Of a stretch of DNA of 64,000 bases, positions 1 to 3,600 are shown piece by piece (position 1 is the first letter of the stretch; every line of letters begins with the position of its first letter). The DNA lies in assembly GCF_900095745.1 (NCBI RefSeq), contig NZ_FMIR01000018.1:310001-374000 (forward strand), written 5' to 3'. Position numbers and translations under genes: made by a program. Under the pieces are notes generated by a model. That model was not told where the DNA came from. It did not search any database and was given only the letters and a program-made list of their open reading frames with translations. The stretch is from Microbacterium oxydans (lineage in GTDB: Bacteria > Actinomycetota > Actinomycetes > Actinomycetales > Microbacteriaceae).

Positions 1-1660
1 TCAGCCGGGCCGGTGATCGCTGGAGCCGACGGAGCCACCGTGTCGACCGTGAACTCGATCGGGTCGCCCGCGGTAGCGTTGCCGGCCGGGTCCGTCGCCG
101 TCGGCGTGACCGTGTTGGTCCCTTCCGGCAGCGGATCAGTCGGCGTGCACGACCACGCACCGTCGACCACCGTCGTCGTGCACAGCACCGTGCCATCACC
201 GTCGGTCACGGTGATCGTGTCGCCATCATCCCCAGTACCGGTGAACGTCGGCGTCGCATCCGCCACGACATCGCCATCCTCGGGACCCGTGATCACCGGG
301 GCCGACGGGGCGACCGTGTCCACGGTCAGATCGATCGGGGTACCCGCCGTCGAGTTTCCGGCCGGGTCCGTCGCGGTCGGCGTAATCGTGCTGGTGCCCT
401 CCGGCAGCGGATCCGTGGGCGTGCAGGACCAGGCGCCAGCCGCCACGGTCGTCGTGCACAGCACGTTTCCGTCACCATCGGTGACGGTGATCGTGTCGCC
501 GTCATCCCCAGTGCCGGTGAATGTCGGCGTCGCGTCCGTCACCACATCGCCATCGGCGGGGCCAGTGATCACCGGCGCGGACGGCGCCACCGTATCCACC
601 GTCACGTCGATCGGAGCACCCGCCGTCGAGTTCCCCGCAGGGTCGGTCGCGGTCGGGGTGACCGTGTTCGTGCCTTCCGGCAGTGGATCGGTCGGGGTGC
701 AGGACCACTCCCCATCGACCACAGTCGCGGTGCAGAGCACGGTGCCGTCACCGTCCGTCACGGTGATCGTGTCACCGTCATCGCCTGTGCCGGTGAACGT
801 CGGTGTCGCCGTGTCCACCACATCGCCATCCGCCGGGCCCGTGATCACGGGAGCGGTGGGGGCTACCGTGTCCACCGTCACCTCGATCGGTTCTCCCGGG
901 GTGGAGTTCCCCGCCGCGTCCGTCGCCGTCGGCGTGATCGTATTCACGCCTTCCGGCAGCGGATCAGTGGGTGTGCAGGACCACGCGCCATCGACCACAG
1001 TGGCCGTGCACAGCACGGTGCCGTCGTCATCCGTCACGGTGATCGTGTCGCCGTCATCACCCGTGCCGGTGAATGTCGGCGTGGCATCCGTCAGCACCGC
1101 ACCATCCGCTGGACCAGTGACCACCGGCGCCGAAGGGGCCACCGTATCCACCGTGAACGCGACGGGTGCACCCGTCGTGCTCGTGCCGTCGATGTTCGTC
1201 GCCGTCGGCGTCGCCGTCGCTGCGCCTTCGGGCAATGCCGTCGTGGGCGTGCACGACCAGGCACCGTCCACCACGGTCGTCGTGCAGAGCACAGCACCGC
1301 CGCCATCGCGCACCGTGATCGTGTCGCCATCGTCTCCGGTGCCCGTGAAGGTCGGCGTGGAATCCGCTACCACGTCACCGTTCGCGGGTCCCGTGATCAC
1401 CGGCGTCGACGGCGAGGGGACATTCACGGTGATCGCATTGCCGGCGAACGCCTGGCCGTTGACCACGGTGTACGGCTGCACGACGTTGGCGCCCACGGCG
1501 AGATCCGACGTCGACGTGCAGCTCCACGTCCCCGCCGCGGTCACCGTCGCTGTGCAGAGCACCGCGCCCGAATCGTCGCGCATCTCGACCACGTCGCCCG
1601 GTGTTCCCGTGCCGGAGAATGCCGGTCGAATCGGAACCGTCGCTCCATCGGCGGGACCGG
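1..1660 (-). repeat. Tandem Ig-like domain repeats, 276-bp unit
   Basis: Anchoring on the CCG before GTGAA (plus-strand reading) places units at 238, 514, 790, 1066 and 1342, four exact 276-bp steps (92 codons). A divergent unit follows 270 bp on, at 1612. The units look nearly identical at DNA level and the array continues past the window edge. Such arrays change copy number by recombination, so the true number may vary between strains. Confidence 0.9.
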
Positions 1661-2678
1661 TCACCACAGCTGCGGCACCCCACTGGAGTCGCACGGTCCC
1701 ATTTCCGCCGCTCGCTGCAGCTCCGCCGCCGGATGCTCCTCCACCCAGTGTCAGCGCCGCGCCGACCACACCAGGAGCCGCAAAGCCTGACCCGCCGCCG
1801 CCTCCGCCGTCGCCGATACCCAGCAGAGCCAGACACCGACCGCCACCGCCCCCGTAGTAGCCGCCACCGCCGCCACCGCCGCCGTCGATGCTCAAATTCG
1901 AAGCGCCCCCACCGACACCTCCCGCATATTGCGTCCCCGCCGCCGGAGCACCAGCCGTACACGCACCCGTCCCCGCTGCTCCGCCCGCAGTCTGGCTACC
2001 GCCGCGTCCGGTTTCGGCTAGCCCTTCTGCGGGCGCCGGGGCTCCCGCGGTGCCTCCTCCGGCGCCTCCGGCGGAACCGGCCGCACTGCTTCCTCCGGGT
2101 GCACCACCTCCACCGCCTGCGATGAGCAAGGGAGTGACGCCGTACCCGCCTTGCCAGATCGCGCTCATGCCTCCACCGGCTCCACCAGGACGCACGTTTC
2201 CGGTGGCCGCGCCGCCACCGACGGCGCCGCCGCCGTAAGTCGGAGCCCCCTGCAACGGCGCACCGCCCTGGCCGACGGTGACCGTGAGAGATGCTCCGGG
2301 CGTGACGGATAGGACGCCGACCGCCTGTCCGCCCGCGCCTCCGCCCTGCGTGCCCTGACCCGCGCCCGCCCACTGGCCCCCGCCGCCGGCACCCGTGAGC
2401 GTGGCGCTCACCTGCGTGACGCCTGTGGGGACGGTGAAGGTCTGGTCGCCGCCGCTGTAGGTGAAGTCGACGCAATGCACGTACGCGCCCGTCGGGACAC
2501 ACGCGACCTCCGCTGCCGAAGCGGATTCCGACCCGCCGAAGCCCGCGGTCAACGCCGACGCCACGCCGAGGAGCAGCGCCAGAGTCGCAGCCATCTTTCG
2601 TGGGGCCGCGGTACGAGGGGCCGCAGTGGCCACGGCAGCCCGGCGAACCGGACCTGTCCCGCGAGTGATCCGCTTCAT
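1..2678 (-). CDS. Secreted glycine-rich surface protein with Ig-like tandem repeats (C-terminus outside window)
   Basis: The frame is open from an ATG at 2678 to the window edge, so the C-terminus and any wall anchor are missing. A Shine-Dalgarno (GAGGGGAAAG) precedes the ATG. The N-terminus is a long basic signal peptide with a hydrophobic core (ATLALLLGVASALTAG) and a likely cleavage at ASA near residue 55. Residues about 60-330 form a beta-rich start (FTYSGGDQTFTVPTG) followed by very glycine-rich sequence. From about residue 340 come Ig-like repeats with motifs such as TPTFTGTGDDGDTITV, DPLPEG and TDPAGN. Each full repeat carries two Cys (VLC and WSC) that could form a disulfide. Proteins of this build are usually surface-exposed or adhesive; that role is inferred from architecture. 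An internal ATG at 2594 would give a shorter signal peptide. Confidence 0.85.
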   Translation of the reverse strand, partial: MKRITRGTGPVRRAAVATAAPRTAAPRKMAATLALLLGVASALTAGFGGSESASAAEVACVPTGAYVHCVDFTYSGGDQTFTVPTGVTQVSATLTGAGGGGQWAGAGQGTQGGGAGGQAVGVLSVTPGASLTVTVGQGGAPLQGAPTYGGGAVGGGAATGNVRPGGAGGGMSAIWQGGYGVTPLLIAGGGGGAPGGSSAAGSAGGAGGGTAGAPAPAEGLAETGRGGSQTAGGAAGTGACTAGAPAAGTQYAGGVGGGASNLSIDGGGGGGGGYYGGGGGRCLALLGIGDGGGGGGSGFAAPGVVGAALTLGGGASGGGAAASGGNGTVRLQWGAAAVVTGPADGATVPIRPAFSGTGTPGDVVEMRDDSGAVLCTATVTAAGTWSCTSTSDLAVGANVVQPYTVVNGQAFAGNAITVNVPSPSTPVITGPANGDVVADSTPTFTGTGDDGDTITVRDGGGAVLCTTTVVDGAWSCTPTTALPEGAATATPTATNIDGTSTTGAPVAFTVDTVAPSAPVVTGPADGAVLTDATPTFTGTGDDGDTITVTDDDGTVLCTATVVDGAWSCTPTDPLPEGVNTITPTATDAAGNSTPGEPIEVTVDTVAPTAPVITGPADGDVVDTATPTFTGTGDDGDTITVTDGDGTVLCTATVVDGEWSCTPTDPLPEGTNTVTPTATDPAGNSTAGAPIDVTVDTVAPSAPVITGPADGDVVTDATPTFTGTGDDGDTITVTDGDGNVLCTTTVAAGAWSCTPTDPLPEGTSTITPTATDPAGNSTAGTPIDLTVDTVAPSAPVITGPEDGDVVADATPTFTGTGDDGDTITVTDGDGTVLCTTTVVDGAWSCTPTDPLPEGTNTVTPTATDPAGNATAGDPIEFTVDTVAPSAPAITGPA

Positions 2679-2788
2679 TGCTCTTTCCCCTCAACTGTTC
2701 CGCGCTGGGGCACACGTAACGATCGAAGAGTATTACGACACTCAGCGGAAACATAGGGTTACCGGAAAAATACCGATATAATGCGCCG

Positions 2789-2803
2789 CGCCCGGCACGG
2801 GCG
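2789..2803 (-). terminator. Small hairpin after the methyltransferase gene
   Basis: A 6-bp perfect stem (CGCCCG/CGGGCG) with a 3-nt loop lies just past the stop of the methyltransferase gene on the minus strand. There is no U-tract. The adjoining 2690-2785 stretch is unusually AT-rich and should hold the surface-protein promoter, but I could not pick a convincing -35/-10 pair. Confidence 0.45.
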
Positions 2804-2808
2804 TCTTG

Positions 2809-3600
2809 TCAGACGCGGGCGAGGATCTCGCCGTGCGGCACGAGGTACCAGCCGTCGCCGTCGTCGGCCCAGCGCTTCCACGCATCGCTGATCTCCTGCA
2901 GATCCGCAGGAGTCGCCATGTCACTGTCCACCAGCTGCCGCGCGAGTGCCGACTCGAGGATGCGGTCGGCCCACATCCCACCCCACCAGGCGCGCTCAGC
3001 CGGCGATGCGTAACACCAGGTGGATGCCGTCGCGGTCACGTCATCGAAACCCGCGGCCCGCGCCCACGCCAGCAACCTGCGCCCGGCATCCGGCTCGCCG
3101 CCGTTCGCACGCGCCGCCGCCTGGTACAGCGCCAACCACCTGTCGAGCTCGGGCAGGACGGGGAACCAGATGAAGCCCGAGTAGTCGGCATCGCGGGCTG
3201 CGACGAGTCCGCCGGGAACGGTCACCCGACGCATTTCGCGAAGCGCCTGCACCGGGTCGCCGACGTGCTGCAGAACCTGGTGCGCGTGTACGACGTCGAA
3301 CGAGTCATCAGGGAAGCTCAGCGCGTGCACATCCTCGACCGAGAAGGCGAGGTTGCTCAGGCCGCGTTCCTCGGCGAGGCCACGCGACAGCGACAGGGCG
3401 TTCTCGTCGATCTCGGTGGCGGTGACATGCCCGACGGCCCCGGCGAAGTCGACGGTGATCGTGCCGGGGCCGGCCCCGACATCGAGGAGCCGGGTCGTGT
3501 CCGTGAGGTGCGGACGGAGGTAGGCGGCGGAGTTCGCGATGTCGCGCACGTTGTGCGAGCGGAGAACTGATTCGTGGTGTCCGTGCGTGTACGAGGCCAT
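2809..3600 (-). CDS. Class I SAM-dependent methyltransferase (UbiE-like)
   Basis: A 263-residue cytosolic protein with the Rossmann-fold methyltransferase signature. Motif I is LLDVGAGPG at residues 38-46, the acidic ribose-binding residue follows in ATEID near 61-65, and the post-II/III region reads SFDVVHAHQVLQHV. This is the Methyltransf_11/UbiE type, which transfers a methyl group from S-adenosylmethionine to a small molecule. The acceptor cannot be read from sequence. The ATG at 3600 lies 5 nt past the stop of the upstream P-loop gene, so the two are probably co-transcribed. It could be the menaquinone methyltransferase given nearby men genes, but it does not look like canonical MenG, and I leave the substrate open. 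Confidence 0.85.
   Translation of the reverse strand: MASYTHGHHESVLRSHNVRDIANSAAYLRPHLTDTTRLLDVGAGPGTITVDFAGAVGHVTATEIDENALSLSRGLAEERGLSNLAFSVEDVHALSFPDDSFDVVHAHQVLQHVGDPVQALREMRRVTVPGGLVAARDADYSGFIWFPVLPELDRWLALYQAAARANGGEPDAGRRLLAWARAAGFDDVTATASTWCYASPAERAWWGGMWADRILESALARQLVDSDMATPADLQEISDAWKRWADDGDGWYLVPHGEILARV

What the first reader, a model, noticed from the sequence alone, without database searches (positions are those of the whole stretch)
1..1660. Exact 276-bp periodicity in an Ig-like surface array
Four successive units are spaced at exactly 276 bp and look nearly identical in DNA, while the sixth (nearest the N-terminus) is diverged and 6 bp shorter. That points to recent unit duplication or gene conversion and a length-variable surface protein. 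Each full unit has two Cys.
Basis: partly seen in the sequence, partly recalled or inferred. Interest (0 to 1): 0.5.

Follow-up and report, generated by a model that had tools for sequence, protein, structure and literature searches.

The report
Imported Ig-domain stalk adhesin gene
The repeats are the stalk of a large bacterial surface protein, probably gained as a finished array of old, well-diverged copies rather than built by recent local duplication; the protein type itself is known.

Summary
The 276-bp spacing is real. Window 1-1661 holds the first units of a 14-unit array in one minus-strand gene (1,755 aa, cut by the window). Units match Pfam Big_13, SiiE-type Ig-like domains. "Nearly identical in DNA" is wrong: units 3-6 are 80-82% identical with dS 0.68-0.92, overlapping that of the "diverged" sixth (0.78-1.63). 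Regular 92- or 93-aa spacing recurs in 10 of 13 scored arrays of the family, so it is no sign of recent copying. One gene-conversion-like patch exists, outside the window. New here: the gene alone fills a 5,399-bp insertion between a methyltransferase and a histidine-kinase gene, flanked by a 23-bp direct duplication (21/23); at least 86 of 366 genus genomes keep the uninterrupted site. The array resembles those of another genus and shares their Cys pair, absent from most Microbacterium arrays compared. Best reading: a disulfide- and probably Ca2+-stabilised, probably sortase-anchored stalk adhesin, acquired ready-made. Known kind, modest interest. Strain-level length variation could not be tested.

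The parts
1..2678 (-). N-terminal part (892 of 1,755 codons) of the surface-protein gene; it continues past window base 1 to its stop (full gene L007:9412-14679, G000:C12:307411-312678)
1674..2513 (-). glycine-rich N-terminal region (aa 56-335), candidate distal head; preceded by a leader that looks like a signal peptide (read by eye, no predictor run)
   Evidence: sub-threshold ALK_LTK_GRD match, 20.7 bits against 24.5; no Pfam match when scanned alone
1395..1661 (-). unit 1: diverged, 89 aa (267 bp), two Cys; lacks most of the Asp residues shared by units 3-14
1119..1394 (-). unit 2, 92 aa, two Cys, 70-74% DNA identity to units 3-6
843..1118 (-). unit 3, 92 aa, Big_13
567..842 (-). unit 4, 92 aa, Big_13
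   Evidence: modelled with unit 5, mean pLDDT 97.6
291..566 (-). unit 5, 92 aa, Big_13
15..290 (-). unit 6, 92 aa, Big_13
1..14 (-). first bases of unit 7; units 7-14, the degenerate 15th domain, the LGTTG tail, hydrophobic helix and RSRR lie outside the window
2679..2806 (-). 128-bp upstream region carried by the insertion, about 55% G+C against 69% for the window; presumed promoter (no sigma-70 consensus match)
2807..2829 (.). one copy of the 23-bp direct duplication (21/23, first 17 exact) at the 3' end of the methyltransferase gene; the other copy, L007:9386-9408, begins 3 bp after the surface gene's stop
2809..3600 (-). methyltransferase gene, neighbour of the insertion; its 3' end is intact

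Best explanation
It is a cell-surface stalk (fibrillar) adhesin of a Microbacterium species: leader, glycine-rich N-terminal region, 14 Ig-like Big_13 domains plus a degenerate 15th, then a sortase-type tail (LGTTG, hydrophobic helix, RSRR). Shown by computation: array, fold, Cys pair, class E sortase in the genome, empty site, flanking duplication, likeness to arrays of another genus. Inferred: each Cys pair forms a disulfide between neighbouring strands, conserved Asp residues bind Ca2+ at domain junctions as in SiiE, the sortase anchors the protein, and the stalk holds the N-terminal region away from the wall for attachment. The gene entered this lineage as a finished array by a single-gene insertion in the methyltransferase / histidine-kinase gap and was not expanded recently. 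The units are kept alike at protein level by purifying selection while their DNA has drifted apart.
For: Domains: Big_13 646 bits, 15 stretches; Ca_tandemer NF033510 381 bits, cut-off 50. Fold: two-unit model pLDDT 97.6, top Foldseek matches SiiE BIg50-52. Cys 37 and 48 lie in neighbouring strands 35-40 and 45-48 of the model; Cys pair in 15 of 15 domains. Class E sortase 231.7 bits, cut-off 160. Old units: dS 0.42-1.39 over pairs of units 2-14, against 0.29-0.63 for five flanking genes between this species and G023, the best kinase match among 58 relatives searched. Purifying selection: median dN 0.08, dS 0.72, the lowest ratio of 13 arrays. Empty site: at least 86 of 366 genus genomes; 23-bp duplication, 0 of 396 random window pairs as good. 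Affinity: fork with genus g39 supported 95/96 among 11 arrays; C-terminal region closest to g39, 40-45%; Cys pair in g39 arrays, 0 of 81 domains in seven Microbacterium arrays.
Against: No donor is known: best relatives are only about 50-60% identical, and for a single unit g39 is nearly tied with Aeromicrobium, Nocardioides and other actinobacterial loci that were not in the tree (unit 9: 107 against 105 to 100 bits). Another Microbacterium, G362, has the Cys pair in 2 of 2 domains. dS to further congeners is 0.46-0.97 in most flanking genes, so unit age is like that of the genus's species, not clearly older. Loss in the other species is not excluded. LGTTG differs from the LAXTG that class E sortases prefer (passages). 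No adhesive domain was recognised. NG86 dS is rough near saturation. The tree has 93 columns, long branches and an unsettled bootstrap. One conversion-like patch shows some exchange between units.
Confidence: 0.68

Rival explanations
1. Recently expanded, length-variable 'Periscope' array: units multiply and are lost by recombination between near-identical DNA copies, changing stalk length between strains.
For: Exact period; Big_13 is among the stalk folds shown for Periscope Proteins (passages); domain number differs between likely orthologues in related species (23 and 20; 19 and 13); one conversion-like patch.
Against: No pair of units 2-14 below dS 0.42; units 3-6 are 80-82% identical in DNA and the longest exact tract among units 2-6 is 23 bp, in the whole array 70 bp.
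Confidence: 0.13
2. Ancestral Microbacterium gene lost in the other species, the empty sites being left by precise deletion between the 23-bp repeats.
For: A deletion between the two copies would also restore the site; unit divergence is about as deep as divergence between congeners.
Against: Needs many independent precise losses (at least 86 of 366 genomes have the uninterrupted site); the array is more like those of another genus than like most Microbacterium arrays compared.
Confidence: 0.1
3. Stalk without adhesion: a rod that builds a surface layer or spaces the envelope, with the repeats themselves as the working part.
For: Units are kept unusually alike in protein (mean 85% aa, lowest dN/dS of 13 arrays); no adhesive domain recognised.
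Against: Stalk plus non-repeat N-terminal region plus anchor-like tail is the architecture described for fibrillar adhesins (passages).
Confidence: 0.15

Closest known systems
SiiE of Salmonella enterica, BIg domains (PDB 2YN3, 2YN5; Pfam PF19077)
   Same: Same domain family and fold; the only solved structure matched by sequence (E 9.9e-15) and the top Foldseek hit. The D/E residues named for type I Ca2+ sites (passages) have apparent counterparts: VD, GDDGD and TD(P/A)AGN in units 3-14.
   Different: SiiE has 53 domains and is secreted by a Gram-negative type 1 system; this one has 14 full domains, a leader, a sortase-like tail and a Cys pair per unit. Ca2+ binding untested. By VIA-align other proteins rank above SiiE.
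Periscope Proteins (SasG, Rib, Sgo_0707; PMC8201768, passages and section 7 read)
   Same: Tandem folded domains forming a stalk between an N-terminal region and a wall-anchor-like tail.
   Different: Those have long, highly similar DNA repeats and repeat-number variation between strains; here units 3-6 are 80-82% identical in DNA and strain variation is untested.
   Same: Mostly 92-aa spacing (91-92 in G547), Cys pair, C-terminal tail LVTTGAD...RSRR seen in G486 and G596.
   Different: Different N-terminal region in G486 and G596, 13-23 domains, units about 50-55% identical to these.
Microbacterium arrays G028, G221 (M. helvum), G183, G159, G241, G216, G348
   Same: Big_13 arrays; sortase-like tails in the six whose ends were read (G348 not read).
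   Different: Mostly 93-aa spacing (G216 mostly 92), Cys pair in 0 of 81 domains, different N-terminal region.
Mobiluncus mulieris giant adhesin (PMC10619420, passages)
   Same: Actinobacterial Ig-like array with intramolecular cross-links, a disulfide among them.
   Different: Its repeats are ester- and isopeptide-bond domains; not compared by sequence here.

Membership tests
Pfam PF19077 Big_13 | score over gathering threshold | tested here: met
   646.1 bits against 27; 15 stretches
NCBIfam NF033510 Ca_tandemer | score over curated cut-off | tested here: met
   381.2 bits against 50
NCBIfam NF033510 Ca_tandemer | Ca2+ stabilisation of the repeats | not testable with these tools
   ligand-like Asp shared by units 3-14; binding needs an experiment
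Bacterial Ig-like (BIg) fold | beta-sandwich matching solved BIg domains | tested here: met
   model pLDDT 97.6; Foldseek 2yn3_C E 5.8e-10; VIA-align 2yn3_C Z 10.4, rmsd 4.1, 178 aligned
Periscope Proteins | tandem array of folded domains in one chain | tested here: met
Periscope Proteins | highly similar repeats in the DNA | tested here: inconclusive
   66-89% DNA identity over units 2-14, 80-82% in units 3-6; no numerical threshold in the text read
Periscope Proteins | repeat-number variation between strains | not testable with these tools
   one genome per species held; only between-species differences of relatives seen
Class E sortase substrate | LAXTG-type pentapeptide, hydrophobic helix, positive tail | tested here: inconclusive
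   LGTTG, then hydrophobic stretch, then RSRR; class E sortase in genome; P3 is Gly, not Ala
Integrase-borne genomic island | flanking direct repeats at a gene's 3' end | tested here: met
   23-bp duplication, 21/23
Integrase-borne genomic island | own integrase or transposase | tested here: not met
   the 5,399 bp consist of 128 bp upstream, the 5,268-bp gene and 3 bp

The most novel reading that the evidence does not exclude
The gene is a mobile single-gene adhesin cassette: an integrase-less element that enters the 3' end of the methyltransferase gene by site-specific recombination in trans, the 23-bp repeats being its left and right attachment cores, and that carries ready-made stalk adhesins between genera of the family.
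Probability: 0.05. Interest if true: 0.55.

Novelty: new member of a known kind. Interest (0 to 1): 0.28.

Why it matters
It shows that exact repeat periodicity in an Ig-like array need not mean recent duplication: the spacing recurs across the family, and protein likeness between units can persist after synonymous sites have drifted far. It also gives a clean natural case of single-gene gain of a surface stalk at a defined empty site. Why this array keeps its units so alike in protein is a small open question.

Tried and rejected
Active codon diversification between units: the identical-codon fraction 0.61 exceeds the 0.53 expected from array codon usage and the 0.45 seen between G000 and G486 units, so there is no sign of it, only incomplete drift. 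Other large inserts at the same site: I fetched 20 of the loci where only the left part of the junction matched; 3 of 20 had methyltransferase and kinase matches together (gaps 116-368 bp), 17 of 20 had no kinase match within the 8 kb or so fetched. G022 has about 0.95 kb extra between the two genes; no duplication was seen by eye in the 200 bp printed at each end. Of 16 kinase loci fetched, 10 had the methyltransferase next to the kinase and 6 had no methyltransferase match. Terminal inverted repeats: none seen by eye at the insert's ends. RNA families in the window: 0 matches at gathering level. Sigma-70 promoter or terminator in 2600-2900: none. Non-homologous end joining as capture route: possible, a Ku gene is present, untested. 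Papers on such a protein in Microbacterium: none among the 10 of 70 and 8 of 16 papers listed; that is no proof of absence. In one search unit pairs of unequal length, unit 1 and the 15th domain were dropped before the means; two of 15 loci (G362, G409) gave too few regular units. The conversion test shuffles single sites and ignores codon structure. The structure alignment took 4 window segments and 47 of the 117 two-unit segments; enterobacterial ones, Salmonella among them, were left out.

Full report
WHAT IS THERE. The window is G000:C12:310001-374000 of a 3.99-Mb genome. Two genomes of its genus have contigs of the same length and content as records named Microbacterium helvum and Microbacterium sp. 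A20 (G221 and G362), so the genus is taken to be Microbacterium. The stretch pointed out lies at the window's left edge inside a minus-strand gene that starts at window 2678 and ends 2.6 kb beyond base 1. Fetching the neighbouring DNA gave the whole gene, 1,755 aa. It has a leader, a glycine-rich region (aa 56-335), 14 units (the first 89 aa, the next 13 exactly 92 aa), a degenerate 15th domain, and a tail LGTTG, hydrophobic stretch, RSRR. The genome holds two further, single Big_13 matches elsewhere.

PERIODICITY AND IDENTITY. The 276-bp period is exact over 13 copies. Over units 2-14 the smallest dS is 0.42. Of codons for shared amino acids, 0.61 are identical between units, against 0.53 expected from array codon usage alone and 0.45 between these units and those of G486. 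So the units are old and held together at protein level (median dN 0.08, dS 0.72).

RECOMBINATION. A permutation test on 142 variable sites found one long matching run, units 8 and 13, 70 bp exact; 1 of 2000 permutations was as extreme. A shorter run joins 8 and 14. This supports limited past conversion, outside the window. Among units 2-6 the longest exact tract is 23 bp.

COMPARISON ARRAYS. Thirteen of 15 arrays, this one included, could be scored. Spacing is mostly 92 or 93 aa in 10 of 13; G547 mixes 91 and 92, G111 and G224 are irregular. This array has the highest mean protein identity (85%) and the lowest ratio of median dN to median dS (0.11; G111 and G224 rest on 4 and 1 pairs). Younger copies do occur elsewhere: minimum dS 0.14 in G183, 0.17 in G221, 0.25 in G028 and G348. 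Domain number differs between likely orthologues: G486 23 and G596 20, G028 19 and G221 13. Orthology is judged from their non-repeat ends (54% and 87%; 83% and 73%); synteny was not tested. In G486 and G596 18 pairs of units match one to one by position in the tree, with the difference in the middle.

ORIGIN. In 12 congeners searched with Big_13, no match lies at this locus; 7 of 12 have weak matches elsewhere. In 10 of 16 kinase loci fetched the methyltransferase and kinase genes are neighbours. A 186-bp junction from G023 found an uninterrupted match in at least 86 of 366 genus genomes, own genome counted in the 366 (155 of 366 had any match; the listing is cut). In this genome the junction is split into two pieces that overlap by 23 bp: query 1-66 and 44-186. 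The two copies agree at 21 of 23 bases, the first 17 exact; 0 of 396 random pairs of places reached 21. The insert between them is 5,399 bp: 128 bp upstream, the 5,268-bp gene, 3 bp. dS to G023 is 0.29-0.63 in five flanking genes; to further congeners it is higher, mostly 0.46-0.97. The units are thus about as diverged as congeneric species, while the duplicated flank is nearly intact. A ready-made array inserted later is the simplest account; it is an inference.

AFFINITY. In 366 genus genomes 13, this one included, have unit matches at E 1e-12 or better, the best others about 53-57% identical. In a sample of 299 family genomes 5, this one included, pass E 1e-20, three of genus g39 best by score. 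Among 11 arrays the tree puts units 1-14 with g39 (support 95/96), and the 15th domain with a g39 domain too; it has 152 rows, 93 columns, long branches and an unsettled bootstrap. The C-terminal region is closest to g39, 40-45%. For unit 9 alone g39 (107 to 103 bits) is nearly tied with Aeromicrobium, Nocardioides, Streptomyces and G362 loci (105 to 100 bits), which the tree did not hold. A Cys pair is in 15 of 15 domains here, 22 of 23, 19 of 20 and 12 of 13 in g39, and 0 of 81 in G028, G221, G183, G159, G241, G216 and G348; it is also in 0 of 10 and 0 of 8 in the irregular arrays of G111 and G224, but in 2 of 2 in G362, whose site is empty. GC3 of the gene is 0.80 against 0.84-0.93 in seven neighbours.

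STRUCTURE AND MECHANISM. A model of units 4-5 has mean pLDDT 97.6. SiiE BIg50-52 is the only sequence match among solved structures at E 0.01 and the top Foldseek match. The VIA-align second look ranks the Bap C region (Z 13.0), CbhA modules (Z 12.9) and several others above SiiE (Z 10.4), so the fold is a common Ig-like one and the SiiE link rests mainly on sequence. SiiE's type I Ca2+ site is made of D/E from neighbouring domains (PMC5466336, passages); matching acidic residues occur in units 3-14, not in unit 1. A class E sortase is the only sortase found. Adhesion itself is inferred from architecture; no adhesive domain was recognised.

VERDICT. A real array, a known kind of protein, with the wrong reason given for its periodicity. 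The added finding is the empty site and the likely import.

Noticed in passing
L007:9326-9385 (off the window's left edge) and the same gap in L039-L043: Upstream of the histidine-kinase gene a TACATC-N7-GGATG element, a near inverted repeat, is kept in this genome and in relatives (by eye); it may be an operator of the neighbouring two-component system and was left intact by the insertion.
   Followed up: partly
window 1-1857, + strand; L007:8177-13858, + strand: A 1,893-aa open frame runs antisense through the whole array; most likely a by-product of G+C-rich repeated codons.
   Followed up: no
G135:C1 near 55252 (L067): Another genus genome shows a 10,511-aa open frame with a weak match to the sortase-like C-terminal region, one TGA counted inside: a possible giant surface protein.
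   Followed up: no
L097, L102, L121 (Propionibacteriaceae MAGs), L103 (Nocardioides cavernae), L101 (Streptomyces smaragdinus) and others: Cys-paired Big_13 units are patchy: 10 of 10, 9 of 11, 14 of 14 and 11 of 11 in the first four, some in Kitasatospora and myxobacterial loci, 0 of 33 in L101, and none in the enterobacterial and Limnohabitans loci scanned.
   Followed up: partly
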